Assembly: GCA_947626065.1 (NCBI GenBank)
Contig: CANQQT010000016.1
Span: 1-39,783 of the forward strand
Direction: 5' to 3'
Length of the DNA: 39,783 nucleotides
Source of the DNA: an uncultured Clostridia bacterium
GTDB taxonomy: Bacteria > Bacillota > Clostridia > Oscillospirales > CAG-272
Below, in pieces: positions 4,812 through 39,493 of the stretch. Numbering within the stretch: position 1 is the first letter of the stretch; every line of letters starts with the position of its first letter. The notes below the pieces were generated by a model. That model made no database searches. It had not been told where the DNA came from and saw only the letters and a list, made by a program, of their open reading frames with translations. The position numbers were made by a program, and so were the translations under genes.

Positions 4812-7748
4812 TTACAGAACCTCAAAAGGATTGACGCCCATCTGACTTCTGACAAGCCGCGCCTCTTCGATAATCTCTTCAAACAGCGTTCTGCGGTTAA
4901 TCTGAGCGACAAAACGGTAAACAGAACCGGCGTTTGACTTCCCGCCCAATTCTTCGCGGAAAATCTTTCGGAGAAGGTTTTCCGGCGTTTCAATGTTCGT
5001 TCCGCTCCGTTGATCTCCGAGAATCGCGGCAAAGGGAGCATTTGGTGGAATAACAGCGCCGGTTGCAAGGCGCGGGATTTGAGGAACGGTGAGTTCGTTT
5101 ATCCAGTCAAACGGTTTTATTTTTAAAATGCTGATTCCCTTTAGCTTACGGAGAACGGCGTTAATGCCGTTGAACGGCTGTTCAATTACCCAGTTTATTC
5201 CGTCAATCAGGGTATTTAACAACCCGGCAAGCGCGTTTTTCAGGCCTTCCCAAGCCTCGCCCCAGTCTCCTTCAAAAATACCGGTTATAAAATCGAATAC
5301 ACCCGTCAGCACATTCTTGATATCCTCAATCAAGTTTTTTACCGTGCCTATAATGCTGTCGAAAGTGGGCTTGACAGATTCCCAGATAAAGTTCACAAGA
5401 GGCTCAAGAATCTTGTCCCATAACCATTTCAGAACGGCTATAATCTTGTTCCACGCGGGAAGCAGAACTCGTCTAACATACGCGACAACAGCGCGCCATG
5501 CCGAAAGAAATACCGATATCAGAAAATCCCCAAGAGGCACAAGAACGTTGTTCCAAAGCTGGTCGAGCACGTAGGAAATAATAGAGATAACCGGCTCTAA
5601 AGCATCCTTAAGAAATGCTCCAAGAGGCACAAGGACGTTTTCCCACAAGTCTTTTGCGACGTCTTTCAAATCAGAAATAACGGTTGCGCAAGCGTCAATC
5701 GCGGGGTTTATGAAATCTCGCCAAGTGCTGACAAACGCGCTCATCAGGAAATCCGTAAGAGGAGAAAGAGTATCCATCAAAGAATTAAATCCGGCGGTCA
5801 AGTCCGGCAACATTGTGCCCGTCAGATAGCCGATAGATTCCTTGATAGAATCGGTCGCGTTTGAAAGGCCTTCCATCGTCCCGGCGGCGGCCTGCGACAT
5901 CTCGTCCTTGTGTTCGTTGAAAATCCCCGTGAACTGACTTACAATATTCAGAAGATTTGTTGAGACAAATTCCCCGATTCCGGTGAATAAGTCGGCAAAT
6001 ATCGAAAGCGTATTCGCGGTGACTTGCTGTGCCGTTTCGCTTCCGAAAACGGAAAACACCTCGGCAATACCTTGCGACAAGCTCCCTTGAAGCGTATAAA
6101 GGGAAGCGCCGACGTCAAACATCTTCGTGAGACGTTGGGAAATCTTCGGCCCGTCGGATTCCAAAAATTTGCTGATTCCTCCGGTCAGATTTTGGCCAAT
6201 CGTCGCCCCAATGCTCGCAATCGAGCCGGCCACTTGTCCAAAATAGCGGGAAACAGATTCCGCAAAATTCGACGCGGAAGAGGATAATTCAGGGCTTGAA
6301 AACATTCCGGAAAGCTCTTGTGCGATTCCCTGAATATTGCTCTTTATGCTGTCAAATTTGGGGGAAATATCGCCGAGCCCGTCCTTGAATCCGGACGAAA
6401 AGACAGACGCAAGCTTTTTTGCCTGTTTTACGATTCCCTGTATCTTTTTCGCGATAGAATCGAAAATGGAAGAGCCTTTTTCCGCAGATGAAAAATCCAC
6501 TTCCGGAACAATCGTTTGAATCGCCCCGGAACTTCCGGCAGAAGAGCTTGCGCCGCTTGCCGCCTCCGGTTCCGAATACTTGTTAATCTCATCAAGCCCG
6601 GAAAGATAGCCGTTTTGAGCCTTTTCCGCTTCTTCCACCGATTCCGTTATCTCGTTGAAAGAACCGGCTACTGCTCCGTTGCTTTCGACTGCCTGTTCTG
6701 CCGCGTCTGCTCCTGTCAGAACTTGCGTAAAATGTAGAAAAGCGTCGGCGGCCTGTTGCAAGTATCCAATAAGCTGATTCAGGCTAACAAGAAGAGGCTT
6801 CAACACGTTAATGAGGCCCTGCCCAAGCGTGGCCTTTAGGCTGTTGAACTGCTCCGAAAGGATACGCGTCTGATTCGCCCATCCGTCCGAAGTCCGCGCG
6901 AAATCCCCTTGCGCCCCGCTTGTGGCGTTCAGCAAATAGTTATACCGAAGAAGAGCTTGCTCCTGTTGCGTCATCGCGTTGTACGACTTCGTGATACCCT
7001 GAGAAAGCGCGAATTGCTCAAGGTTTGCCACGTTCAGGTTGATTCCAAGCTGTTTCAGAGGCTCTGTTTCCCCTGAAATCCCTGAACGGATTTTCGCGAA
7101 AGCCTCTTCTGCGTCAAGGTTATAAAAGGACGCCATATCACCGGCAAGCCCGGCAATACTCATACCCATATCTGCCGCTTGCCGTTCGCTGAATCCCATG
7201 GATTTCAGCATCGCACCCATGGTAGAAGAGAATTGTTTCGCGGAGGTCTCGGAAAGCCCGAATTGCTTTATCGCGTTTTTCGCAAAGTCGTTAATTTCTC
7301 CGTTCAGATCTCCAAACGTGACGTCGACCACGTTCTGAACTTCTGCAAGGTCTGAGCCAAGCGCAATTGACTCCTTGCCGAAAGAAACAAGCTTGTGGAC
7401 TGCAAAGGCCCCGGCCATAAGTTTTGCTATTTTTTTAATAGCAGAAGAAAGGGAAGACAGTCCTCCGCCAGCGGCGGATTTTGCCTCGTTTCCAAGCTCT
7501 CTTGTGCTTTGAGAAGTGTTTTTTGTTTCCTTGCCGTACTCCTTCATTTTTTGAGTTATATCGGCATTTGGAGCCAGTGAAAGCCCTTCGACAGAGGAAG
7601 ACTTGAGAGAATCGGCCATGCCCTTCACAGATTTCTCGGCCTTGTCCACCATATCCTTAATCCGCTGTTCGACTTTTTCGGCACCGCCTTCTACGCCGTC
7701 GGTGTTGATTTTTGTATTTATATATACCGCGCCGTCTTCGTTTGCCAT
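4812..7748 (-). CDS. Phage tail tape measure protein
   Basis: 978 aa with long helical regions and hydrophobic segments; largest gene in tail module. Confidence 0.9.
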   Translation of the reverse strand: MANEDGAVYINTKINTDGVEGGAEKVEQRIKDMVDKAEKSVKGMADSLKSSSVEGLSLAPNADITQKMKEYGKETKNTSQSTRELGNEAKSAAGGGLSSLSSAIKKIAKLMAGAFAVHKLVSFGKESIALGSDLAEVQNVVDVTFGDLNGEINDFAKNAIKQFGLSETSAKQFSSTMGAMLKSMGFSERQAADMGMSIAGLAGDMASFYNLDAEEAFAKIRSGISGETEPLKQLGINLNVANLEQFALSQGITKSYNAMTQQEQALLRYNYLLNATSGAQGDFARTSDGWANQTRILSEQFNSLKATLGQGLINVLKPLLVSLNQLIGYLQQAADAFLHFTQVLTGADAAEQAVESNGAVAGSFNEITESVEEAEKAQNGYLSGLDEINKYSEPEAASGASSSAGSSGAIQTIVPEVDFSSAEKGSSIFDSIAKKIQGIVKQAKKLASVFSSGFKDGLGDISPKFDSIKSNIQGIAQELSGMFSSPELSSSASNFAESVSRYFGQVAGSIASIGATIGQNLTGGISKFLESDGPKISQRLTKMFDVGASLYTLQGSLSQGIAEVFSVFGSETAQQVTANTLSIFADLFTGIGEFVSTNLLNIVSQFTGIFNEHKDEMSQAAAGTMEGLSNATDSIKESIGYLTGTMLPDLTAGFNSLMDTLSPLTDFLMSAFVSTWRDFINPAIDACATVISDLKDVAKDLWENVLVPLGAFLKDALEPVISIISYVLDQLWNNVLVPLGDFLISVFLSAWRAVVAYVRRVLLPAWNKIIAVLKWLWDKILEPLVNFIWESVKPTFDSIIGTVKNLIEDIKNVLTGVFDFITGIFEGDWGEAWEGLKNALAGLLNTLIDGINWVIEQPFNGINAVLRKLKGISILKIKPFDWINELTVPQIPRLATGAVIPPNAPFAAILGDQRSGTNIETPENLLRKIFREELGGKSNAGSVYRFVAQINRRTLFEEIIEEARLVRSQMGVNPFEVL

Positions 7749-10360: not shown

Positions 10361-10400
10361 AGTTAATACTTGTAATCGTACCCGGCGGCCTTTCATAATG

Positions 10401-10430
10401 AAAAAAGGATATACCAACATGGGTATATCC
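10401..10430 (-). terminator. Rho-independent terminator after tRNA-like RNA 2
   Basis: Minus strand: GGATATACC-CATGTT-GGTATATCC followed by TTTTTT; 9-bp perfect stem. Confidence 0.8.
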
Positions 10431-10435
10431 CTCAG

Positions 10436-10506
10436 AAAGGCACCCGGATTTGGACCGGGAAAATGCTCCGAATCGAGCCGTTTTACCAGACTTAAACTAT
10501 GCCTTT
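10436..10506 (-). ncRNA. tRNA-like RNA 2 (shortened anticodon arm)
   Basis: Minus strand parses as AAAGGCA-TA-GTTT(AAGTCTGGTA)AAAC-G-GCTC(GATTCG)GAGC-ATTTT-CCCGG(TCCAAAT)CCGGG-TGCCTTT: 7-bp acceptor, 4-bp D stem, 5-bp T stem with 7-nt loop; anticodon arm 14 nt instead of 17; no CCA. Confidence 0.65.
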
Positions 10507-10514
10507 CCAAGGTG

Positions 10515-10542
10515 ATTATACCGCAATTTTGGTATATCCCAA
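10515..10542 (-). promoter_or_regulatory. Candidate sigma-A promoter for tRNA-like RNA 2
   Basis: TTGGGA-N16-TATAAT on minus strand; predicted start about 2 nt before acceptor stem. Confidence 0.5.
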
Positions 10543-10543
10543 T

Positions 10544-10610
10544 AGTGACACCCGGAGTCGCACCGGGCCCTCCGCTTGTGCGGCGTCCTCCTTCGTAGAC
10601 GATTATCACT
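10544..10610 (-). ncRNA. tRNA-like RNA 1 (shortened anticodon arm)
   Basis: Minus strand parses as AGTGATA-AT-CGTC(TACGAAGGAG)GACG-CCGC(ACAA)GCGG-AGGG-CCCGG(TGCGACT)CCGGG-TGTCACT: 7-bp acceptor (one G-T), D stem, 12-nt anticodon-position hairpin, 5-bp T stem; no CCA. Confidence 0.65.
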
Positions 10611-10616
10611 AATGAG

Positions 10617-10645
10617 ATTATACCATACTTACTCTTGAATTACAA
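10617..10645 (-). promoter_or_regulatory. Candidate sigma-A promoter for tRNA-like RNA 1
   Basis: TTGTAA-N17-TATAAT on minus strand; predicted start falls on first base of acceptor stem. Confidence 0.6.
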
Positions 10646-11038
10646 GCCTATTTTTTTTCTTTTCCTATCCCAAAGTAGAAGAATCCTATCTATAATTTTT
10701 TGCTCTTTTGCATTTGGTTTTCGTGTACCGTATTCGTCATGTTCATATCCTATGTGGGTATGCGGCACCTCTAACTCTCCATGCTTCGGACCTGTTACAT
10801 CTATTTGTCGCGTTCTTTCTCCCTCAACATCGTAGAAGGTTATGTACTTGATATTATTGTTTCCATCCAATGTAGCGTAAACTCTTCCTCGTGTCATGGT
10901 TTCCATAGGGGATTTTGTAGAATTCGTATCAAGATACTTTACAACTTTGATATTACCAAATTGGGCCAAAGTCTTATACTCGCTCCCATACGGCTTCCCG
11001 CTGTCGCTCATCCCACTGCTTGCGCCTCTACCACCCAT
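10640..11038 (-). CDS. MGGRGASSG-leader small phage protein with PHxH motif (toxin-domain-like)
   Basis: 132 aa MGGRGASSGMSDSGKPYG...YITFYDVEGERTRQIDVTGPKHGELEVPHTHIGYEHDEYGTRK.... Confidence 0.6.
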   Translation of the reverse strand: MGGRGASSGMSDSGKPYGSEYKTLAQFGNIKVVKYLDTNSTKSPMETMTRGRVYATLDGNNNIKYITFYDVEGERTRQIDVTGPKHGELEVPHTHIGYEHDEYGTRKPNAKEQKIIDRILLLWDRKRKKIGL

Positions 11039-11633
11039 TACAGACTGCCTCTTTGAATTTATCTTGAAACGCCTTTATCCGCAAAATATTTCCCGTACAT
11101 TCTTCAGGAACGCTTCCGTAAAAGATAATGCTTTCCGGCTGTAACCGTCGTACCATTTCCGTATATCCGGCGAGAAACAGCTTACGTTTTGCCTTGCCGT
11201 TCATACAACCTACACTGGAAACCGCTACCGTACCGCCCACCGGCTCACCGTCAAAGCACCACTCGAAGCTATCCGGTGTACTCCACGATATTGTTGGTAT
11301 CACATTCACATCGTATTCTTGCAGATACGCACCAACCCAATGTTTGCGGTAGTGGTTGTAAATCTGTATCGCTTTCGGAAAATCTGTGTACATGGAAAAG
11401 TCTGGTGTCATTACATAGCAAAACTGTGAGAGCATTTCTACGTATCGGTCAATATTTGTCCACAGCCTGTTGAATTGGTAGTCGTCAACGAAAAAATGCA
11501 CGCCCTTGTTAGCCCGGTCTTTTACCCCTGACGCATAATTGAACCCGATGAACTCACAGTTTCCTCGAAAATGTGTCGGCAATAGCTGCGGTATGCCGTA
11601 TTCGCCCACGCCGTCAAATATCCTGCGTTCCAA
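11028..11633 (-). CDS. DUF4417-like protein
   Basis: 201 aa from TTG start, RRIFDGVGEYGIPQLLPT...ISWSTPDSFEWCFDGEPVGGTVAVSSVGC; frame open upstream to the stop of the previous gene. Confidence 0.65.
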   Translation of the reverse strand: MERRIFDGVGEYGIPQLLPTHFRGNCEFIGFNYASGVKDRANKGVHFFVDDYQFNRLWTNIDRYVEMLSQFCYVMTPDFSMYTDFPKAIQIYNHYRKHWVGAYLQEYDVNVIPTISWSTPDSFEWCFDGEPVGGTVAVSSVGCMNGKAKRKLFLAGYTEMVRRLQPESIIFYGSVPEECTGNILRIKAFQDKFKEAVCNGW

Positions 11634-28623: not shown

Positions 28624-28637
28624 AATCAAAATGTGGG

Positions 28638-28666
28638 TTGCAAAAAGGTTGAAAACGTGTTATAAT
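28638..28666 (+). promoter_or_regulatory. Sigma-A promoter of the Mur ligase operon
   Basis: TTGCAA-N17-TATAAT. Confidence 0.75.
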
Positions 28667-28696
28667 AGGATAAGTTATTCTGTTCAGAGGGAAAGG

Positions 28697-30226
28697 GTGA
28701 GAAAGGACGTGGAAAGAAGGCATTCTCAGCCGGGGGAGAGAGGACTGCAAAGCTACGCGGCGGTGCTGGAGGCGGAGGGACTGCTCCGAGAGGGAAGCGA
28801 GGAGAATCCCGCGGTGAAGAGCCTCACGTTCGACACAAGAGACGTAGGGGAGAAGGCCCTCTTTTTCTGTAAAGGAGCCCATTTCAAAGAGGAATACCTC
28901 AAAGAAGCGGAAGAAAAGGGAGCCGTGGGCTACGTGGCGGAGGAAAGACACGGGAGTCGACTGCCGTGCCTGCTCGTTTCCGACGTCCGGAAGGCCATGA
29001 GCGTCCTCGCGCCCTTTCATTACGGGTATCCGCAAGAGGAACTCGCCGTCGTGGGAATCACGGGAACCAAAGGAAAAAGCACCGTGGCCTATTATCTGAA
29101 GGCCATTCTCGATAAAGCCTATCCGAAGGAGTGCGCGATTCTTTCGTCGGTGGACAATTACGACGGAGTCATAAGAGAGGAATCGCACCTCACGACGCCG
29201 GAGGCCCTGACGCTCTTCCGGCATCTGGCAAACGCTGCGGATGAAGGAATCCCGGCGCTCGTCATGGAGGTGTCGAGCCAAGCGCTCAAATACGGAAGAG
29301 TGGAAGGACTGATCTTCGACGCGGCCTGCTTCCATAACATCGGATCCGACCATATCAGCCCCATCGAGCACCCCGATTTCGAGGACTATTTTTCCTCAAA
29401 GCTGAAAATTCTCGACGCCTGCCGCGTCGCCTGCATCAATACCGACGCCGAGCTTGCCGAGAAAGTCCTTGAAAGGGCGAAAAGGAATCGGTGCCGAATC
29501 GTAAGGTACGGAAAAGGGAAGGGGAACGAGGTCACCGTTTCGGGAGGAGAAAAGAGGGAAGGAAGAATCTTCTTCCGGGTCAGAACTCCGCGATACGAAA
29601 GGGAGATGAGTCTGGCCATGCCGGGACTCTTCAACGTCTCAAACGCGGCGGCGGCCATAGCGCTGGCCGAGGTGCTGGAAGTCCCGGAGGAGGCGGTCGC
29701 CGAGGGACTGAGGGAAGCGAGGGTCAAGGGAAGAATGGAGGTTTTCCCCGCGGAGGACGGAAGAACCGTCGCCATCGTCGATTACGCGCATAACCGAATG
29801 AGCTTCGAGGCCCTGCACCGGTCGGTGAGGGAGGAGTACCCCGGGAAAAAGCTGATTTTCGTCTTCGGAAGCGCGGGAGGAAAGGCCTATAGCCGAAGAA
29901 GGGATCTCGGGGACGCGGCGGGTGAGCTGGCCGACTTCACGGTGATTACCGAGGAGGATTCCGGAGAGGAGCCCTTTGAGAAAATCGCGAGGGACCTCGG
30001 GGAGAGAATCGCCGCGAAGGGCGGAAAATATACCGTCATCGAGGACCGGGGAGAGGCCATCCGGAAGGCGATTTTCGGAGGGGAAGAGGACAAGGTCGTC
30101 CTCGTCCTCGGAAAAGGAAGGGAAACGAGACAGAAGAGGGGAACGGAGTATGTCCCCGTGCCCTCCGACGTCGATTACGTCAAAGAGGCCATCGAGGAGT
30201 ACAGCCGAAGAAAGGCGCACGTCTGA
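28697..30226 (+). CDS. Mur ligase family protein (MurE-like)
   Basis: GITGTKGKSTVAYYL ATP loop, VMEVSSQALKYGRV; start moved to GTG with GGGAAAGG upstream because the listed ATG precedes the promoter. Confidence 0.85.
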   Translation: MRKDVERRHSQPGERGLQSYAAVLEAEGLLREGSEENPAVKSLTFDTRDVGEKALFFCKGAHFKEEYLKEAEEKGAVGYVAEERHGSRLPCLLVSDVRKAMSVLAPFHYGYPQEELAVVGITGTKGKSTVAYYLKAILDKAYPKECAILSSVDNYDGVIREESHLTTPEALTLFRHLANAADEGIPALVMEVSSQALKYGRVEGLIFDAACFHNIGSDHISPIEHPDFEDYFSSKLKILDACRVACINTDAELAEKVLERAKRNRCRIVRYGKGKGNEVTVSGGEKREGRIFFRVRTPRYEREMSLAMPGLFNVSNAAAAIALAEVLEVPEEAVAEGLREARVKGRMEVFPAEDGRTVAIVDYAHNRMSFEALHRSVREEYPGKKLIFVFGSAGGKAYSRRRDLGDAAGELADFTVITEEDSGEEPFEKIARDLGERIAAKGGKYTVIEDRGEAIRKAIFGGEEDKVVLVLGKGRETRQKRGTEYVPVPSDVDYVKEAIEEYSRRKAHV

Positions 30227-30318
30227 AAAGGAACGGGTGGAAGAGGACAGACGCAAAAGGAACGCGCCGAGCACCCCCGGGAGGCCCCTCGAAAAGAAAC
30301 AAGTCAGGAGAAGAAAAA

Positions 30319-32178
30319 ATGTGCGGATTTGCCGGATTTTACGGTGGAGAATGGGAAAGCAGAAAGGAAATCTGCGAGAGAATGGGGGAGAAAATCGCCC
30401 ATAGAGGCCCCGACGAGGCAAGGAGCTATGACGACGGGAAGCTGAGCGTCAGCTTCCGGAGGCTCTCGATCATCGACCTCGACAGAGGCTCCCAGCCGAT
30501 GACCTCCGAGGACGGAAGGTACGTCCTCGTCTTCAACGGGGAAATCTATAATTTCCGGGAGCTGAGAGAGGAGCTGGAGGAGCCGGGACGCCCCTTTGCC
30601 ACCGATTCCGACACGGAGGTGCTCCTCCGGTGCTGTCAGAAATACGGGGAGCAGACCCCGAAGCACCTCAGAGGAATGTTCGCCTTCGTCTTTTACGACA
30701 GGGAAAAGAAGAGCCTCTTCGGGGCGAGGGATTTCTTCGGAATCAAGCCGCTTTTCTACGCGATGTGGGAGGGAACTCTCCTCTTCGGATCGGAAATCAA
30801 GAGCTTCCTGCCCCATCCGGCCTTCAAAAAGGAGATTCATAAGGAGGCGCTCAAGCTCTATCTTGAATTTCAGTATTCGCCCCTGCCGGAGACCATCTTC
30901 AAGGGCGTCTACCGGCTCCTCCCGGGGCATTTCTTCACCTACGACGAAAAAAACGGATTTCGGACGGAGGCCTACTTCGAGCCGAAGCTTGAGAAGAAAA
31001 AAAAATCGTTTCACAAAGCAGTGAGCGGAATCGAAAAAGCCGTCCTCTCCTCTGTGGAATATCACCAGATTTCCGACGTTGAGGTCGGCTCCTTCCTCTC
31101 AGGAGGCGTCGATTCCTCCTTCGTCGCCTCCACCGTTCGACCGATGAAAACCTATTCGGTCGGCTTCGCGGTCGAAAAATTCGACGAAACGGGGCAGGCG
31201 GCACGGCTGTCGGAGCTGCTCAAAATGCCAAACCGCGCCAAAATGATTTCGCCGGAGGAGTTCTTCGACGCGCTGCCCGACGTGCAGTATTATTCCGACG
31301 AGCCGCACGCCAATCTCTCCGCCGTTCCGCTCTATTACCTCGCGGGACTGGCCGCCGAGGATCTGAAGGTCGTGCTGTCGGGAGAGGGAGCCGACGAGCT
31401 CTTCGGGGGCTATGATTGGTACATCCAGAGCGAGGCCGCAAGAAGAATGAAAAAGCTCCCGAAGGCGGTGAAGCATACGCTGGCCAAAACCCTCGGACGC
31501 CTGCCCGTCCGCCATCTGGCGAGCTTCTTTAAGGCTCTCGACGAGAATGTGGAGGATACCTATATCGGACAGGCCTTCATTATGGACGATAAGGAGGCCA
31601 ACCGCCTCCTCGCGCCGGAATGGAGATGCGATATTTCCTATAAGGACGTCACGGCCCCCTTCTATGAAAAGGTGAAGGGAAAGGACGACCTGACGAAAAA
31701 GCTCTACCTCGATATGAAGCTCTGGCTCCCGGGGGATATCCTCCTCAAGGCCGACCGGATGACGATGGCCCATTCGCTGGAGCTGAGGGTGCCCTACCTC
31801 GACACCGAGGTGTGGGAGCAGGCGAGAACCCTCCCACCGGCCTTCAAGGCAAAGGGAAGGAAAACCAAACGCGCCTTCCGGGCCGCCGCGGGAAGACACG
31901 TCCCGAAGGAGTGGAAGAAGAGAAAGAAGGCGGGCTTCATGGTGCCCTTCCGGGTGTGGCTGAGGGAGGAGCGCTTCGCGAGCCGCGTGAGGGAGGCCTT
32001 CGAGTCGGAGGCCGCCGGAATTTTCTTCGACCGGGAAGCCCTGCTCGACCTGCTGGAGCGCCACGTCGCGGGAAAAGGGAACCACGCGAGAAAAATCTAT
32101 ACGGTCTATTCCTTCCTGCTGTGGTATGACCGGTATTTCGTCAGCACGAAGGAGGCCGGCCATGAAGACAAAAAGTAA
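30319..32178 (+). CDS. asnB: Asparagine synthase (glutamine-hydrolysing) family amidotransferase
   Basis: MCGFAGFYGG N-terminal Cys, HRGPDEA, FLSGGVDSSFVAS. Confidence 0.9.
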   Translation: MCGFAGFYGGEWESRKEICERMGEKIAHRGPDEARSYDDGKLSVSFRRLSIIDLDRGSQPMTSEDGRYVLVFNGEIYNFRELREELEEPGRPFATDSDTEVLLRCCQKYGEQTPKHLRGMFAFVFYDREKKSLFGARDFFGIKPLFYAMWEGTLLFGSEIKSFLPHPAFKKEIHKEALKLYLEFQYSPLPETIFKGVYRLLPGHFFTYDEKNGFRTEAYFEPKLEKKKKSFHKAVSGIEKAVLSSVEYHQISDVEVGSFLSGGVDSSFVASTVRPMKTYSVGFAVEKFDETGQAARLSELLKMPNRAKMISPEEFFDALPDVQYYSDEPHANLSAVPLYYLAGLAAEDLKVVLSGEGADELFGGYDWYIQSEAARRMKKLPKAVKHTLAKTLGRLPVRHLASFFKALDENVEDTYIGQAFIMDDKEANRLLAPEWRCDISYKDVTAPFYEKVKGKDDLTKKLYLDMKLWLPGDILLKADRMTMAHSLELRVPYLDTEVWEQARTLPPAFKAKGRKTKRAFRAAAGRHVPKEWKKRKKAGFMVPFRVWLREERFASRVREAFESEAAGIFFDREALLDLLERHVAGKGNHARKIYTVYSFLLWYDRYFVSTKEAGHEDKK

Positions 32179-33436
32179 AAGGGAAGAGGGAGCCCCGCAA
32201 AAAAAGGAAAAATTCCTGCCGATTCTGCTGGGAAGCGACGAAAACGTCTACGGAAACGTCCGACTCTTCCGGGAGGCCTTCCCCGTCACGCCGCTCGTCC
32301 TCTGCGGAGCGCTGCTTGTCGGAGTCCGGAAGAGTAGGCTCTGCGAGGTAAGAGTCGTGCCGGGACTCGATCGGGAGGAGGTCTTTGTCCCCACCCTCCG
32401 CGCCGTGCTGGAGGAGAAGGGAAAGGAGGCCGAGAAAATCGTCGTCGTCCCCTGCTCAGATTATTACGCAGAGCTGCTTTCAAGGCATTACGGGGAATTT
32501 GAGGGAAGAATTTCAAACGCTACGCTCCCGCCCGAGCAAATCGAGGAGCTGAACCGGAAGGATCGGTTCTATGAAATCTGTAAAAAATACCGGCTGGATT
32601 TCCCGAAGACACGCGTCCTCACAAGGGAGGAAGGAGCGGGGAGCCTCTCCCCCGCCGAGGAGGGATTTTCCTATCCCGTCGTCCTGAAGCCGGAGAACAG
32701 CAACGCCACGGAATATCTGCACTGCCATTTTCCCGGGAAAAAGAAGGTCTTCTTCCTCCACGACGAGGAGCAGTATAAAAAAACGGTGGAGGCCGTCTAT
32801 GCGGCGGGATATACGGGAAAGCTCATCTTGCAGGAGTTTATCCCGGGAGGGGACGACGCGATGAGGGTTGTCAATACCTATTCCGGGAACGACGGAAGGG
32901 TAAGACTGCTCTGCCTCGGGCAGGCCGTCCTTGAGGAGTATTCCCCCGCGACGCTCGGAAATTACGCCGCCGTCATCACAAGGGGAGACGACGACCTGTA
33001 TGAGAAAATCGAGGGCTTCCTCAACGCGATTCATTACGTGGGATTTGCCAATTTCGATCTCAAATATGACCGGAGAACCGGAAAAACCCTCGTCTTTGAA
33101 ATCAATAACCGCCCGGGAAGAAGCAGCTTCTTCACAAGGGCCGCGGGATGCAACCTGATGAAAACGATGGTGGAGGACGCCGTCGAGGGGAAGCCCTGCC
33201 CGACGCCGATAAGAACCGCGAAAACCGCCCTCTGGACGGAGGTGCCGCGCGGGGTGCTGATGAAGTATACCGAAAACGAAGAGCTGAAAAGGGAGATAAA
33301 GGCGCTCTGGAAAAAGGGAACCCTCTACAGAACCCTCTTCTGCCGGGAGGACAAGGGCCTGCGCCGACGCGCCGCCGTGTTGCGCTACTATTATTCCTTC
33401 TATAAAAACTATCGAAAATATTATTTCAAAAAGTAG
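32162..33436 (+). CDS. ATP-grasp carboxylate-amine ligase (COG3919-like)
   Basis: YPVVLKPENSNATEYL, LQEFIPGGDDAMRVVNTY, FEINNRPGRSSFF; overlaps the asnB end. Confidence 0.8.
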   Translation: MKTKSKREEGAPQKKEKFLPILLGSDENVYGNVRLFREAFPVTPLVLCGALLVGVRKSRLCEVRVVPGLDREEVFVPTLRAVLEEKGKEAEKIVVVPCSDYYAELLSRHYGEFEGRISNATLPPEQIEELNRKDRFYEICKKYRLDFPKTRVLTREEGAGSLSPAEEGFSYPVVLKPENSNATEYLHCHFPGKKKVFFLHDEEQYKKTVEAVYAAGYTGKLILQEFIPGGDDAMRVVNTYSGNDGRVRLLCLGQAVLEEYSPATLGNYAAVITRGDDDLYEKIEGFLNAIHYVGFANFDLKYDRRTGKTLVFEINNRPGRSSFFTRAAGCNLMKTMVEDAVEGKPCPTPIRTAKTALWTEVPRGVLMKYTENEELKREIKALWKKGTLYRTLFCREDKGLRRRAAVLRYYYSFYKNYRKYYFKK

Positions 33437-33525
33437 AGTCGCCGTTTTTTCATCGCCCGAAACCGAAGAGGCCCCCGTCGGGGCCAAACGAACCGGGGAG
33501 CCCAAGGAACCAAAGGAGAAATCGC

Positions 33526-34746
33526 ATGGAACTGATTGCCGAAGGAAAGCTCATGACGGTGAAGGAGGGGGAAGCCGTCCCCTGCCGGAGCGAAATTCTC
33601 GAAAAATACTTGAGGACGGTCAGGGAAAGCGCCGAGAGGAACGAGTGGAAATATTCCGGAGAGGGAGCGAAATTCACGGGGAGCTATCGGGGAGACGCCG
33701 ACGGGGAGAGCGCCGTGAAGGCGGTCAATTACCGATTCCGGGGAATCGCGAGGGAGGGAAGCGGAGACCTGCTCTATACGCTCTCGATCGACAACACCTC
33801 GGGGCTCTATCAGAGGCCGGAGGAGGGAGGAGACGAGGGGATTCTTCTCAGCGAACGCTTCGGAAGCTATCGGGAGATCGCGGAATGCGAGGGAAACGTG
33901 CTGGTGACGGTGGAGCAGATGGGAGAATGCCACGTCGGAGTGATTGAAAAGGGAAGCAGGAGCTGCCGGATCCTCACCGAAGGGGAAAGCCGGGAGTCCT
34001 CTCCCGCATGGTCGAAAAGCCGACCGGGGCAATTCTATTACAGCAGCGCGGGACTGGAAAGCCTCGGAGTGCCGGAGGAAGAAAGAAAAAGACCGAACGA
34101 GGACTTCCGGATGATGGGGCAGATGTATCTGCCGACGGTGGAGGAGGCCCCGACAAGGAGAAAGGGCCCGGCGGGAATCTACCGGATGAGCCTTAACGAT
34201 TTCACGATCGAAGAGTTGCTCTACGATGAAAAATACGACTACCTCTGCCCCGTCGAGGACGGAGAGGGCGCACTGTGGTTCATCCGGCGCCCTTATCAGG
34301 CCGGGAAGGAGAGCGGGGGAAGGAGCTTTTTCACACTGCTGAAGGATATCGTCCTCTTTCCCTTCCGGATGATACGGGCCCTCGTCGGATTTTTTAACGT
34401 CTTTTCGATGAAATATTCCGGGAAAACGATACGGAGCGGGGACGTCAAGGCGAAAAACGTGTCGGAGAGGGAGCGGTTCGTGATGGGGAATCTCATCAAT
34501 GCCGAGGAAGAAATGAAGAAGAACCGCGAAAAGGGAGACGCCTTCCCGGGGTATGTGCCGGGGAGCTACGAGCTCTGCCGAAGAAAGAACGGAGAGACCG
34601 AGAAAATCGCGGGGGGAGTCGGAGCCTTCGCCCTCGCCCCCGACGGAGTCTATCTGTCCAACGGAGCGTATCTTTTAAAAATGAAGGAAAAGGGAAAGGT
34701 CGAAAAGGTCTGCCGACTCGAAGGGATCACCGCCATCGTGCCGTAA
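33526..34746 (+). CDS. Unknown conserved-looking protein
   Basis: 406 aa ORF, good codon continuity with neighbours, GGAG upstream. Confidence 0.65.
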   Translation: MELIAEGKLMTVKEGEAVPCRSEILEKYLRTVRESAERNEWKYSGEGAKFTGSYRGDADGESAVKAVNYRFRGIAREGSGDLLYTLSIDNTSGLYQRPEEGGDEGILLSERFGSYREIAECEGNVLVTVEQMGECHVGVIEKGSRSCRILTEGESRESSPAWSKSRPGQFYYSSAGLESLGVPEEERKRPNEDFRMMGQMYLPTVEEAPTRRKGPAGIYRMSLNDFTIEELLYDEKYDYLCPVEDGEGALWFIRRPYQAGKESGGRSFFTLLKDIVLFPFRMIRALVGFFNVFSMKYSGKTIRSGDVKAKNVSERERFVMGNLINAEEEMKKNREKGDAFPGYVPGSYELCRRKNGETEKIAGGVGAFALAPDGVYLSNGAYLLKMKEKGKVEKVCRLEGITAIVP

Positions 34747-34876
34747 GGGAAGTCGGAGGACAAAGGAAGGCCGCGAAAGGCCTTGAAGGTTTGAAGAAAG
34801 CGGAGACGCGCCGGACGGTGAGGCGGGGAAGGCTTTTGCCGCATGGACGCATAGGAGCCAACGGCAAGGAGGAGCG

Positions 34877-35815
34877 ATGAATACACAGCATTTCAAATAT
34901 GCGCTGGAGGTGGAGCGGACGGGCTCCATCACGCAGGCGGCGGAAAACCTGTTTATGGGACAGCCGAACCTGAGCAAATCGATAAGAGAGCTGGAGGAGA
35001 CGCTCGGAATCGTCATATTCAAAAGGACGTCGAGGGGCGTGGTGCCGACGGCGAAGGGAAAGACCTTTTTGCGGTACGCGAAGGGAATTTTGTCGCAGAT
35101 CGAGGAGATGCAGGCCGTCTGCAAGACCGACGTGCCGGATATGCAGACCTTCAACGTCTGCGTGCCGAGGGGAAGCTACGTCTCCTGGGCGGCGACGCAG
35201 TTTGTCGCCTCCCTCGATAACGGGAAGCCGATGGACGTCAACCTCGGGGAGACGACCTCCATCGACGGGGTCAATATGGTGTCGGACGGAATTTTCAGCA
35301 TCGGAATCATCCGATACCAAACGGCGTATGAGAGCTATTTTCAGGACTTTTTCCGGGAGAAGAATCTGCTGTTTGAAACGGTGTGGGAGTTTGAAAATCA
35401 GGCGCTGATGTCGATGAATCACCCGCTGGCCGCGCAGGAGAGATTGGCGCTGGCCGATTTTGCGCCCTACGTGGAAATCACGCACGGGGACTGCAACGTG
35501 CCGTATATCAACGTGGCGCAGAGCGAAAACGTGTCGCTGAATCTGTCGGGGAAAAAGGTCATCAACCTCTATCAGGGAACGAATCAGTATTCGCTGCTCA
35601 AAACGGTGCCGGGATCCTTCATGTGGGTCTCCCCGACGCCGGAGGAGATTCTGAAAGGCTACGGACTGGTGCAGAGGAAGTGCGACGCACCGGCGCACCG
35701 GTTCAAGGACGTGCTGATTTATCGGGACGGGTCGAGGCTCTCCTATCTGGACAGAAGATTTCTCGATAAGCTCTATGAAATCAAGAACGAAATCGCCTTC
35801 TCCGGGGAGGAGTGA
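34877..35815 (+). CDS. LysR-family transcriptional regulator
   Basis: MNTQHFKYALEVERTGSITQAAENLFMGQPNLSKSIRELEETLGIVIFKRTSRGVVPTAKG. Confidence 0.93.
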   Translation: MNTQHFKYALEVERTGSITQAAENLFMGQPNLSKSIRELEETLGIVIFKRTSRGVVPTAKGKTFLRYAKGILSQIEEMQAVCKTDVPDMQTFNVCVPRGSYVSWAATQFVASLDNGKPMDVNLGETTSIDGVNMVSDGIFSIGIIRYQTAYESYFQDFFREKNLLFETVWEFENQALMSMNHPLAAQERLALADFAPYVEITHGDCNVPYINVAQSENVSLNLSGKKVINLYQGTNQYSLLKTVPGSFMWVSPTPEEILKGYGLVQRKCDAPAHRFKDVLIYRDGSRLSYLDRRFLDKLYEIKNEIAFSGEE

Positions 35816-35864
35816 GGAGACCGCAGGGCCGTTCGCAGAAGCACAGACGCGCCAATCGCCGACT

Positions 35865-35927
35865 GACCGCCGACAGTTGACCATCGACCGCCGACAGTTG
35901 ACCATCAACCGCCGACAGCCGACATAC
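35865..35927. repeat. Three tandem 21-bp repeats
   Basis: GACCGCCGACAGTTGACCATC twice exactly, then AACCGCCGACAGCCGACATAC. Confidence 0.85.
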
Positions 35928-36021
35928 GGACGCGCCGAAAGGCCGGTAGTCGAAGCCCGGAGGAAGAAGAAAGTCCCGAACACCTTCCCAAGAGCGAAAG
36001 AGGAGAAATCCCAAAACGAAA

Positions 36022-36048
36022 AGGCCGCCCCGCCGGGCGGTTTTTGCT
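36022..36048 (+). terminator. Rho-independent terminator after LysR region
   Basis: CCGCCC-CGCC-GGGCGG followed by TTTTTG. Confidence 0.7.
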
Positions 36049-36803
36049 TTTCACCCCCGCCCCGGAACGTCGGCGCCTATTCCCGCCCGCCGCAGGTTTC
36101 CCTTTTCACACGCATAGCGCAGAAAAACACCCGCACGCCAAAAAACGAAACACCCGCTGCCGCAGCAGAACATCGGCCTCCGCGCACGCCTTCGTCGGCC
36201 CCCCCCCGGTTGCGCGGGGGAGAGAGGCCAAAGGAAAAGCCGCTAAAAAAGCAACGCGAAAGCCCGAACCCCGGCCCCCAACGCACGACCCCGCGCTTCT
36301 GCGCCTTGCATCGGCTCCCGACCAAAGCAAACAGAAAAAAAACACCCCGTCCCTCCTCAAAAGCCCGCAAGTCCTCGCGGCGCAGTCCTTCCCGGACGAA
36401 GTCCGGGAATCCCCGGGGGGCCCAACGCACCGTCGCAGGTTCCAGCCCCACCGCAGAAACTAAATCCGAGCGCCGAAGCCCTTCTCCGACCGTGCAAGTG
36501 TGCAAGCACACGCTTCACAGCCCGGCAGTTTGCTGAAATCCTCTCGCCGGAATTTGTGAATTCTGCGAAGGAAAGGCCGCTCCAATATTCTCAAAGATAT
36601 AATAGTCATTCCAAACAGGAATGTTAAAACGGGAACTTTCGACCGAAAAAAGCGGAGAAAAATCCTATTTTGAGAAAATACCCCTCAATTTCAAAAGTGT
36701 TTTTGTTAAATTGATGGAATCGACACATATAAATTTGAAATTCCTCGAATCGATAAAAATATATCGATATTCTTTATTTATATTTCCCTTTTTCGCTTTC
36801 CTT

Positions 36804-36812
36804 TGCTATAAT
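36804..36812 (+). promoter_or_regulatory. Extended -10 promoter element upstream of ldh
   Basis: TGCTATAAT in AT-rich region. Confidence 0.55.
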
Positions 36813-36925
36813 ATTAACGTCGGATTCCTTGATTTTATCCGGAGGGCCGGGGAAAGAATTCCCCCGACGACGACCCGGAGAACGGGAGCCGTTTCACCGC
36901 GCAAAGCGGGAAAGGAAGCTGAAAC

Positions 36926-37870
36926 ATGGGAAGAAAAGTTGCTATTATCGGAGCAGGAAGCGTCGGGGCGACCGTCGCCTATACGCTTGCCGTCAGCGGA
37001 AACGCCGCGGAAGTGGTGCTGATCGACATCAATGAGAAAAAGGCCTTCGGAGAGGCGATGGATATCCGGCAGGGCGCACCCTATACCGCGCCGATCAATA
37101 TCTATTCCGGCGACTATTACGACGCCGTAGGCGCCGACCTTGTGATTCTCACCTCCGGAATCGCGCGTCGCCCCGGGCAGTCCCGTCTCGACCTTGCGCA
37201 GACCAACGTCGATATCGCCAAGAGCATCATCCCGAAAATCACGAAGGCGGCCCCCAACGCCGTCTATATCATCGTCAGTAACCCCGTCGATATCCTGACC
37301 TACGTCTTCTGCCGCCGCTCCGGACTGCCGGAAAAGCGCATCATCGGAACCGGAACGATCCTCGATACCGCGCGTTTCCGCTCCCGCCTCGCCGAGAATT
37401 TCTCCATCAATATGCAGAACGTCCACGGATGCGTCTACGGGGAGCATGGGGATTCCTCCTTCATCCCGTGGTCGATCGCCACCATTTCGGGAACCCACGT
37501 CGACGATTACGCCCGCTCCCGGGGACTGGAGGTCGACGGATGCGGCTTTAATCACGAGGAAATCGAGGAGTACGTGCGGAAGTCCGGATCCACCATCATC
37601 GACGCGAAGGGAGCGACCTATTACGCGATCTCCCTGTCGGTCAACCATATCTGCGGATGCATTTTCCGGGGAATCGATACCGCGCTGCCCGTCTCGACCA
37701 TGATGAACGGGGAATTCGGAATCAGCGACGTCTGCCTCAGCATTCACGCCTTTGTCGGAGCGGGGGGCGTCAACGGAAAGCTCATCAACCCGCTGACCGA
37801 GGAGGAGGTCGGAAAGCTGCGCAACAGCGCCGATCGCCTGAAGGAAGTCATTTCCAGCCTCCGCATCTGA
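36926..37870 (+). CDS. ldh: L-lactate dehydrogenase
   Basis: IIGAGSVGATVAYTLAVSG, VSNPVDILTYV, GTILDTARFR, VHGCVYGEHGDSSF. Confidence 0.95.
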   Translation: MGRKVAIIGAGSVGATVAYTLAVSGNAAEVVLIDINEKKAFGEAMDIRQGAPYTAPINIYSGDYYDAVGADLVILTSGIARRPGQSRLDLAQTNVDIAKSIIPKITKAAPNAVYIIVSNPVDILTYVFCRRSGLPEKRIIGTGTILDTARFRSRLAENFSINMQNVHGCVYGEHGDSSFIPWSIATISGTHVDDYARSRGLEVDGCGFNHEEIEEYVRKSGSTIIDAKGATYYAISLSVNHICGCIFRGIDTALPVSTMMNGEFGISDVCLSIHAFVGAGGVNGKLINPLTEEEVGKLRNSADRLKEVISSLRI

Positions 37871-37930
37871 AAGAGGCCGCAGGTTAGACCCGCAGGGAAG
37901 AGAGGCGCCGGTGACGGAGCCTGCCTGAGA

Positions 37931-38037
37931 CGGGAACCCTGAAAATTTGTAAAAACGCGGCCAAGTCGGGAATCCCGAAGCTTTGTAAAAACGCGCCAAG
38001 CCGGGAATCCCGAAAAACCGCAAAAAGGCGGTCGAGC
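37931..38037. repeat. Three tandem ~36-bp imperfect repeats
   Basis: Units at 37931, 37967 and 38002 begin GGGAAcCCtGAA / GGGAATCCCGAA / GGGAATCCCGAA. Confidence 0.85.
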
Positions 38038-38116
38038 CGATCCCTTTGAGAGGCTGTCTGGCCGCCATTTTCCCGAAAGGAAGAGCGCCGGAGGAAGAAC
38101 CGCCGGACAAAAAGAC

Positions 38117-39493
38117 ATGAATTACCGTATCGAACACGACTCAATGGGAGAGGTCAAGGTCCCCACCGACAAATACTGGGGGGCACAGACCCAGAGAAGC
38201 TCCGAGAATTTCAAAATCGGAGTCGGACAGGAGACGATGCCGAGGGAGATCATCCACGCCTTCGGACTCCTGAAAAAGGCGGCGGCCATGGCCAACGCCC
38301 TCCTCAAGCCCGAAAAAATGACCGCGGAAAAGAAGGAAGCCGTCACGGCGGCCTGCGACGAGGTCATCGCCGGCGAGCTGAACGGCCATTTTCCGCTGGT
38401 CGTCTGGCAGACGGGGAGCGGAACGCAGTCGAATATGAACGCAAACGAGGTCATCGCCAACCGGGGGAACGAGCTGGCGGGAAAGAAGCTCCTCCACCCC
38501 AACGACGACGTCAATATGAGCCAATCGTCGAACGATACCTTCCCGACGGCCATGCATATCGCGGCGGTGCTGATTTTGGAAGACCGCGTGATCCCCGCCG
38601 TCGACGCCCTTGTCGAGACCTTCCGGAGACTGGAGGAGGAGAACCGAGACGCCGTCAAATGCGGAAGAACTCACCTCCAGGACGCCACTCCCATCACCTT
38701 CGCGCAGGAGATCAGCGGATGGAGGAGCAGTCTGGAGCGCGACCGCGCCCTGATCGCCCTGTCGCTCCCGCCGCTGAAGGAGCTGGCGCTCGGGGGAACG
38801 GCGGTCGGAACCGGACTGAACGCCCCCGCCGGATTTGATCAAAAGGTCGCCGAGGCCCTGTCGGAGCTGACCGGGAAGGCCTTCGTCACGGCGCCGAACA
38901 AATTCCACGCCCTCACCTCCAAGGACGAGCTGGTCTTCGCGCACGGAGCGCTCAAAGCCCTCGCCGCCGACCTGATGAAGATTGCAAACGACGTCCGGTG
39001 GCTGGCCTCCGGCCCCCGCGACGGCCTCGGGGAGATTTTTATCCCGGAGAACGAGCCGGGCTCCTCCATCATGCCCGGAAAGGTCAATCCCACCCAGTGC
39101 GAGGCCGTTACGATGGTGGCGGTGCAGGTCATGGGGAACGACGTCGCGGTCGGAATGGCCGCCTCGCAGGGCAATTTTGAGCTCAACGTCTTCATGCCGG
39201 TCTGCATTTACAATTTCCTCCAGTCGGCGCGGCTCCTTGCCGAGGTCATGGTTTCCTTCAATAAGAATTGCGCGGTGGGAATCGTGGCCAATCGCGAAAA
39301 AATGGCCTATAATCTGCACCATTCCCTCATGCTCGTGACGGCGCTCAATCCCTACATCGGCTACGAAAACGCCGCAAAGACGGCGAAAAAGGCCTACGCG
39401 GAGAATATTTCGCTGAAGGAAGCCTGCGTGGCGCTCGGATTTTTGACGCCGGAGCGCTTCGACGAGGTCTTCCACCCCGAAAACATGGTGTAA
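38117..39493 (+). CDS. fumC: Fumarate hydratase, class II
   Basis: [51 protein letters not shown]. Confidence 0.96.

What the first reader, a model, noticed from the sequence alone, without database searches (positions are those of the whole stretch)
10436..10610. Two tandem tRNA-like RNAs with shortened anticodon arms inside a capsid operon
On the minus strand, both elements parse into a 7-bp acceptor stem, 4-bp D stem with 10-nt loop, and a T arm with the same CCCGG/CCGGG stem and 7-nt loops (TGCGACT, TCCAAAT) matching 6 of 7 TTCRANY positions. At the anticodon position there is only a 12-nt (CCGC-ACAA-GCGG) or 14-nt (GCTC-GATTCG-GAGC) hairpin, so neither can be a normal decoding tRNA, and neither encodes CCA. 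Possible roles (inference): decoy for tRNA-targeting nucleases, RNase P/Z processing signal, or a guide/effector RNA partner of the adjacent proteins.
Basis: partly seen in the sequence, partly recalled or inferred. Interest (0 to 1): 0.87.

Follow-up and report, generated by a model that had tools for sequence, protein, structure and literature searches.

The report
Anticodon-less tRNA-shaped phage RNAs
This prophage carries two members of a widespread, separately transcribed family of small phage RNAs that keep the full L-shaped core of a tRNA but have a stub in place of the anticodon arm; they sit beside a toxin-like phage protein and may be its RNA antidote.

Summary
Both elements (10610-10544 and 10506-10436, minus strand) parse as tRNAs with a 12- or 14-nt hairpin replacing the 17-nt anticodon arm. 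Each has its own sigma-A-type promoter ending 5-8 nt before the acceptor stem, and a terminator follows the second.

A covariance model finds the same RNA in dozens of phages and prophages, mainly of Bacillota, and in streptococcal satellites. All four helices covary. So do three tRNA tertiary contacts that the model does not encode (15-48, 18-55, 19-56).

The RNA almost always directly follows P1, a basic 130-aa protein weakly similar to the predicted RNase toxin Ntox24. In 115 P1 genes, 73 are followed by the RNA, 29 by a small acidic immunity-like protein, none by both. An extended -10 promoter (TGGTATAAT) lies at the 3' end of 58 of 66 RNA-type P1 genes and 0 of 29 protein-type ones.

Rfam's unexplained pneumococcal sRNA SpF41, Northern-positive in the literature, belongs to the family.

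Best explanation: the RNA is a tRNA-mimicking antidote for P1. Structure and transcription unit are well supported by sequence; the function is inferred and untested. Decoy and cofactor roles remain open.

The parts
10544..10610 (-). RNA1: tRNA-like RNA with a 12-nt mini anticodon hairpin (CCGC-ACAA-GCGG)
   Evidence: Descriptor match; covariance model R1 70.7 bits, E 2.9e-16; ordinary tRNAs reach only about 45 bits with R2
10436..10506 (-). RNA2: tRNA-like RNA with a 14-nt mini anticodon hairpin (GCTC-GATTCG-GAGC)
   Evidence: Descriptor match; R1 41.7 bits, E 4e-8; sub-threshold Rfam SpF41 match 26.7 bits, E 0.029, covering the RNA plus its terminator
10617..10645 (-). Promoter of RNA1: TTGTAA-17-TATAAT with extended -10 (TGG); the -35 box overlaps the last codon and stop of P1
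   Evidence: the -10 ends 5-6 nt before the acceptor stem, so the predicted transcription start is the first acceptor base
10515..10542 (-). Promoter of RNA2: TTGGGA-16-TATAAT, -10 ending 7-8 nt before the acceptor stem
10399..10433 (-). Intrinsic terminator shared by RNA1 and RNA2 (GAGGGATATACC-CATGTT-GGTATATCCTTTTTT)
   Evidence: an equivalent terminator follows 57 of 64 family members
10640..11038 (-). P1 (phrog_9479; MGGRGASSG N-terminus; 132 aa): basic toxin-like protein, linked partner of the RNA family
   Evidence: phrog_9479 E 1.9e-38; RNA or small acidic protein follows P1 homologs, never both; weak Ntox24 similarity; fold shared with C-terminal parts of phage minor capsid proteins
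11028..11633 (-). DUF4417 protein upstream of P1; frequent neighbour, probably not the RNA's partner
   Evidence: PF14386 E 2.6e-57; P1+RNA lies on the other side of DUF4417 in L005

Best explanation
The two elements belong to a phage-borne family of short RNAs (about 70 nt plus a terminator hairpin) that fold like a complete tRNA elbow and acceptor arm but end in a 4-bp stub where the anticodon arm should be. They are transcribed on their own: a strong housekeeping promoter starts RNA synthesis at the first base of the acceptor stem and an intrinsic terminator stops it just after the stem, so the RNA should also be made in the lysogen. Most likely the RNA is the antidote of the adjacent protein P1. 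On this view P1 is a small basic, tRNA-directed toxin or effector of the phage-capsid (MuF-like) polymorphic-toxin world, and the RNA is a pseudo-substrate that occupies P1's tRNA-binding site, doing the job that an acidic immunity protein does in P1 relatives lacking the RNA. Solitary RNAs in satellites would then be orphan immunity. Supported by sequence: the RNA fold, the transcription-unit layout, the link to P1 and the alternation with the acidic protein. Inferred: that P1 is toxic, that it acts on tRNA, and that the RNA binds and inhibits it.
For: Fold: all four helices covary in a structure-blind alignment (92.5% of cells paired, 16 of 20 pairs with two-sided changes, 0/500 shuffles) and in 64 sequences (94.2%, 19 of 20). 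Tertiary contacts not encoded in the model covary: 18-55 (G18.U55 vs A18.G55), 19-56 (G-C vs U.G) and Levitt 15-48, each p <= 1e-4 even at <78% identity, while the crossed controls 18-56 and 19-55 are not significant there; T54 and A58 are invariant in 64/64. Transcription: extended -10 in 53/64, usually ending 6 nt before the acceptor, terminator in 57/64. Link to P1: a model built on 18 RNAs found the RNA next to P1 in a separate genome collection; T-arm DNA patterns that ignore P1 recovered confident RNAs with P1 directly upstream. Alternation: of 115 P1 genes 73 RNA, 29 acidic protein, 0 both, 13 neither; the promoter is in 58/66 RNA-type and 0/29 protein-type P1 genes. Charge: P1 pI 9.7, acidic protein pI 4.4. 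P1 resembles Ntox24 in 12 of 38 members, best E 2.4e-4, described as a predicted metal-independent RNase toxin found with MuF and in toxin-antitoxin loci (PMC3482391). In MuF systems the gene after the toxin is usually a small presumed immunity ORF (PMC5576092). A family relative, SpF41, is expressed in TIGR4 (PMC3395615).
Against: No toxicity, binding or cleavage was tested. The Ntox24 similarity is below Pfam's cut-off, and P1 has no convincing PDB fold match. The acidic protein has no family or fold match either, so 'immunity' rests on position and charge. The RNA also occurs without P1: L047, L071/L072, L030 and six satellites. This fits orphan immunity but equally a P1-independent role. 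The P1 tree is poorly resolved, so how often the partner was exchanged is uncertain (at least 3 changes forced by well-supported branches, 9 by parsimony).
Confidence: 0.42

Rival explanations
1. The RNA is a free-standing decoy for host factors that recognise the tRNA elbow or acceptor arm, such as acceptor-end nucleases or nucleotidyltransferase toxins of phage defence. P1 is only a frequent neighbour.
For: Dedicated housekeeping promoter; tandem arrays with diverse acceptor stems (L035; three in satellite Javan160); presence in satellites without P1; only the anticodon arm is lost while elbow and acceptor are kept under selection.
Against: Does not explain why the RNA and the acidic protein alternate directly behind P1, or why confident RNAs recovered without reference to P1 in viral contigs had P1 upstream.
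Confidence: 0.22
2. The RNA is a cofactor or cargo of P1: P1 binds the tRNA-shaped RNA and the complex is packaged in the capsid and injected, or P1 uses it as a guide or activator. The acidic protein is then a replacement cofactor or chaperone.
For: P1's fold recurs in C-terminal parts of phage minor capsid proteins; P1 starts with the MGGRG motif also seen in other phage proteins beside such RNAs; P1 is basic.
Against: Satellites and some phages keep the RNA without P1. The constitutive-type promoter does not suggest late, assembly-coupled expression. An acidic protein is a poor replacement for a guide RNA.
Confidence: 0.17
3. The RNA regulates host or phage gene expression, for example by titrating RNase P, RNase Z or tRNA-modifying enzymes, or as a trans-acting sRNA.
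For: SpF41 deletion changes carbohydrate-transport transcripts in TIGR4 and lowers fitness in mice (PMC3395615); the retained elbow and acceptor are what tRNA-processing enzymes recognise (general knowledge).
Against: No conserved single-stranded sequence that could base-pair with targets: the mini-hairpin loops vary freely. No CCA and a terminator abutting the acceptor. It does not explain the alternation with a protein behind P1.
Confidence: 0.12
4. Degenerate ordinary tRNA genes or a chance structure.
For: Models built on the family also hit ordinary tRNAs at 33-45 bits, so common ancestry with tRNA is plausible; true tRNAs occur next to P1 in some phages.
Against: Compensatory changes in every helix and in three tertiary contacts, a conserved promoter and terminator, 0 descriptor hits in 575 shuffled segments.
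Confidence: 0.02

Closest known systems
Rfam RF02435 SpF41 sRNA (F41/srn277 of Streptococcus pneumoniae TIGR4)
   Same: In S. cristatus and S. hyovaginalis the above-threshold SpF41 matches fall on the same RNAs that model R1 finds behind P1; same D arm, mini-hairpin, T arm, acceptor and terminator.
   Different: The window RNAs score below the gathering score (26.7 vs 52 bits). I found no description of SpF41 as tRNA-like, phage-borne or P1-linked; its function is unknown.
Canonical tRNA
   Same: Acceptor, D and T arms, U8/A14-type positions, T54-A58, and 15-48, 18-55 and 19-56 contacts with tRNA geometry.
   Different: 4-bp, 11-18-nt stub (12 nt in most) instead of a 17-nt anticodon arm in the compact members; no anticodon, no encoded CCA; acceptor often 8 or more bp; own terminator.
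Type III toxin-antitoxin systems (ToxIN, CptIN, AvcID)
   Same: A structured RNA paired with a protein, proposed RNA inhibitor of a toxin.
   Different: Here the RNA lies downstream of the protein gene with its own promoter, has a tRNA fold, usually occurs once or twice, and can be replaced by a protein.
MuF / polymorphic toxins with immunity proteins (Ntox24-like)
   Same: Small toxin-like domain of phages with a short gene in the immunity position; fold shared with C-terminal parts of minor capsid proteins.
   Different: In most cases the immunity slot holds a tRNA-shaped RNA gene; P1 itself is a free-standing protein.
mascRNA/menRNA, viral tRNA-like structures, tmRNA
   Same: tRNA-like folds with a non-standard anticodon region.
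   Different: Those are parts of longer RNAs (eukaryotic lncRNAs, plant virus genomes, tmRNA); this is a free-standing phage gene with no tag reading frame.

Membership tests
tRNA | 7-bp acceptor, D arm and T arm with T54-A58 | tested here: met
   (acceptor often extended to 8 bp)
tRNA | D-loop/T-loop and Levitt tertiary contacts | tested here: met
   Covariation of 18-55, 19-56, 15-48
tRNA | 17-nt anticodon arm with 7-nt loop and an anticodon | tested here: not met
   12- and 14-nt hairpins; ARAGORN finds nothing
tRNA | 3' CCA, encoded or added | tested here: inconclusive
   Not encoded in the window elements; enzymatic addition cannot be tested here
Rfam SpF41 | Score at or above gathering threshold (52 bits) | tested here: not met
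   Window RNA2 26.7 bits, E 0.029; streptococcal relatives 84 and 101.6 bits
Rfam SpF41 | Same structure and gene neighbourhood in streptococci | tested here: met
   SpF41 hits coincide with the R1 hits behind P1 in two Streptococcus genomes
Type III toxin-antitoxin | RNA repeats upstream of and co-transcribed with the toxin gene | tested here: not met
   RNA downstream, own promoter and terminator
Type III toxin-antitoxin | RNA inhibits a toxic endoribonuclease | not testable with these tools
   Needs expression and binding assays
Polymorphic toxin Ntox24 | Pfam PF15529 at or above cut-off | tested here: not met
   12 of 38 members match at E<=1, best E 2.4e-4 among them; window 14.7 bits vs cut-off 24
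Polymorphic toxin with immunity gene | Small gene directly behind the toxin | tested here: met
   29 of 115 P1 genes have the acidic ORF, 73 have the RNA, none both
Polymorphic toxin with immunity gene | Toxicity neutralised by the neighbour | not testable with these tools
   Experiment needed

The most novel reading that the evidence does not exclude
Phages and their satellites use tRNA-shaped, anticodon-less RNAs as interchangeable substitutes for immunity proteins: a molecular mimic of the toxin's substrate that acts as the antidote. This would be a toxin-antidote arrangement in which the antidote slot is filled by either a protein or an RNA, with orphan antidote RNAs spreading on satellites.
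Probability: 0.38. Interest if true: 0.95.

Novelty: categorically new. Interest (0 to 1): 0.87.

Why it matters
A tRNA core that has given up decoding but keeps its tertiary contacts under selection, with its own promoter and terminator in many phages, is not a kind of RNA that I found described in Rfam 15 or in the papers searched. It offers a structural account of an unexplained virulence-associated pneumococcal sRNA (F41/SpF41), which was taken for a trans-acting regulator. It also makes a testable claim that an RNA and a protein can fill the same antidote slot behind one phage effector. If P1 acts on tRNA, the RNA is a ready-made minimal substrate mimic for structural work.

Tried and rejected
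Ordinary tRNA gene: ARAGORN and Rfam negative. Degenerate tRNA: rejected by covariation.

DUF4417 as partner: rejected as the main partner, since P1+RNA occurs on either side of it and many DUF4417 loci have no RNA.

Wide genome search with model R2 in 399 same-phylum genomes: 189 had hits, but the best loci are ordinary tRNAs at 33-45 bits. Of the matches listed, only the window exceeds 45 bits, so this search gave a background level rather than new members.

DNA-level search of phages with the window RNA: only 20-30-bp chance matches.

Two longer degenerate DNA patterns in viral contigs gave nothing. The T-arm patterns also returned chance matches without the rest of the RNA (e.g. L206, L209, L211, L212, L235, L238).

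PDB sequence and fold searches for P1, and a PDB fold search for the acidic protein, gave no credible match. PADLOC: none.

Literature searches for a tRNA-like phage sRNA found no prior description; only open-licence papers were searched.

Full report
OBSERVATION. The minus strand at 10610-10436 holds two RNAs that parse as tRNAs except at the anticodon. A structural descriptor run over the window and 84 other loci picked out these two elements, and the region folds 5.2 standard deviations better than dinucleotide-preserving shuffles. ARAGORN finds no tRNA and no Rfam family reaches its gathering score. The best sub-threshold Rfam match to RNA2 is SpF41, a streptococcal sRNA (26.7 bits, E 0.029), which aligns over the whole RNA and its terminator. 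Each RNA has a promoter-like sequence with 10 of 12 consensus matches, and a terminator follows RNA2. The window is a prophage: phage genes on the minus strand and host genes (Mur ligase, asparagine synthase, lactate/malate dehydrogenase, fumarase/lyase family) from 28.6 kb.

RELATIVES. I collected 80 viral loci by the neighbouring DUF4417 protein. In almost every locus that also carries a homolog of the gene just before the RNAs (P1, phrog_9479), a tRNA-like RNA follows P1 directly. Eighteen of these (including one from phage A25) were aligned without structural information. The tRNA cloverleaf with a 4-bp mini anticodon stem forms in 92.5% of cells, 16 of 20 pairs show changes on both sides, and no shuffle or slid control comes near. 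A covariance model (R1) was then applied to 77 P1 loci from a different collection of bacterial genomes. It found the RNA at the end of P1 in about half of them. The 64-member alignment (A3) shows 94.2% paired cells and two-sided change in 19 of 20 pairs. A3 is fitted to the model, so the structure-blind result on A2 is the cleaner test of the helices.

TERTIARY FOLD. The D-loop and T-loop columns are unpaired in the model, so they test the tRNA elbow independently. T-loop base 55 and D-loop base 18 covary (G18 with U55, A18 with G55). Base 56 covaries with base 19 (G-C or U.G), and base 15 with base 48 (G-C, A-U, C-G). Each is significant at p <= 1e-4, also after thinning to 35 sequences below 78% identity. 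The crossed controls 18-56 and 19-55 are not significant after thinning. T54 and A58 are invariant in all 64 sequences. These are the contacts that hold a real tRNA in its L shape. The mini-hairpin is usually 12 nt with a variable tetraloop, so no anticodon function is possible.

TRANSCRIPTION UNIT. In 53 of 64 members an extended -10 box (TG-N-TATAAT type, mostly with TTGAnA 17 nt upstream) lies before the RNA, usually ending 6 nt before the acceptor stem, and in 57 of 64 a terminator follows. The predicted transcript therefore starts at the first acceptor base and ends in a terminator hairpin. In most P1 genes the promoter is read as Trp-Tyr-Asn at the C-terminus. In the window P1 lacks this motif and the promoter has moved just behind the stop codon, which argues that the promoter, not the peptide, is what is kept.

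DISTRIBUTION. A model built from the 64 members (R2) run over 399 genomes of the same phylum gave matches in 189, but the best loci are ordinary tRNAs at 33-45 bits. This confirms the tRNA likeness and sets the background; of the matches listed, only the window exceeds it. The family is therefore sparse and mobile. SpF41 matches above its cut-off in S. cristatus and S. hyovaginalis lie exactly on the R1 RNAs behind P1, so SpF41 is a streptococcal branch. Six streptococcal satellite phages carry the RNA without P1, and Javan160 has three in a row. F41 of S. pneumoniae TIGR4 is Northern-positive and its deletion attenuates sepsis in mice (PMC3395615); it occurs in few pneumococcal strains (PMC12323649), as expected of a mobile element.

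THE PROTEIN PARTNER. P1 is about 130 aa, pI about 9.7, with strongly conserved K, E-T, R, Y and H residues in both classes of P1. It matches Ntox24 weakly in 12 of 38 proteins scanned (best E 2.4e-4). Ntox24 is described as an all-beta predicted RNase toxin with conserved Y, H, H, found in MuF systems and in toxin-antitoxin loci (PMC3482391). AlphaFold gives mean pLDDT 83.5. There is no PDB match, but there are matches (E 1e-4 to 8e-4) to a short viral protein and to parts of larger phage proteins, one named minor capsid protein. P1 genes without the RNA carry instead a small acidic ORF directly downstream (pI 4.4). Across 115 P1 genes the tally is 73 RNA, 29 acidic protein, 0 both and 13 neither. 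Several of the 13 are contig ends (L017, L152, L156, L165) or show an RNA by eye (L067, L100, L101, L113, L145, L153). The extended -10 is at the 3' end of 58 of 66 RNA-type P1 genes and 0 of 29 protein-type ones. The P1 tree is weakly resolved but forces at least three changes for the acidic-protein label.

MECHANISM. The most economical reading is that both downstream partners do the same thing. In MuF polymorphic toxins the small gene behind the toxin is presumed to be the immunity gene (PMC5576092). A basic nucleic-acid-acting toxin blocked either by an acidic protein or by a tRNA-shaped RNA is coherent. The RNA would be a substrate mimic, and orphan copies on satellites would protect the host or satellite from helper-phage P1. 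Supported by sequence: fold, promoter/terminator layout, linkage, alternation. Inferred: toxicity, tRNA as target, inhibition by the RNA. The main rivals are a free-standing decoy against tRNA-directed defence and an RNA cofactor or cargo of P1.

LIMITS. Nothing here was tested at the bench. The acidic-protein profile was seeded from ORFs next to P1, so 'immunity' is a positional inference. Cells in covariation counts are not independent events; thinning addresses this only in part. Literature was limited to open-licence papers, so prior description elsewhere cannot be excluded.

Noticed in passing
window 28631-39493 (+): Host genes (Mur ligase, asparagine synthase, LysR regulator, lactate/malate dehydrogenase, fumarase/lyase family) begin at about 28.6 kb, so the window is a prophage next to its bacterial host's DNA.
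   Followed up: partly
3' ends of P1 genes, e.g. L059:5960-5990, L051:6346-6376: Dual coding: Trp-Tyr-Asn at the P1 C-terminus is the extended -10 promoter TGGTATAAT of the downstream RNA (58/66 RNA-type, 0/29 protein-type P1 genes).
   Followed up: yes
L016:5981-6121, L045:4785-4928, L084:612-754, L097:3356-3499, L171:5900-6047: Long variants of the RNA carry extra sequence at the anticodon position (about 140-150 nt in total) while keeping acceptor, D and T arms; the insert may be a separate conserved domain.
   Followed up: no
L035:6044-6490: Four tRNA-like RNAs in a row behind one P1 gene, with different acceptor stems and mini-hairpins.
   Followed up: partly
L171 (satellite Javan160) 5821-6127; L172-L176: Streptococcal satellite phages carry one to three of these RNAs with no P1, before an accessory gene cassette at the end of the satellite's gene block.
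   Followed up: partly
L030:6799-7149, L071:2248-2604, L234 (3246-2398 on the minus strand): Other phage proteins start with the same MGGRG(A)SS motif but have different bodies; the motif may be a shared targeting or packaging tag.
   Followed up: no
L051:5697-5867; L088:3499-3570: Ordinary tRNA genes (Ile-UAU and Ser-GCU; Met) lie next to P1 and the tRNA-like RNA in some phages.
   Followed up: no
TIGR4 1071112-1071214 (from PMC3395615): The virulence-associated pneumococcal sRNA F41 appears to belong to this phage/satellite RNA family, which may call for re-reading its proposed regulatory role.
   Followed up: partly
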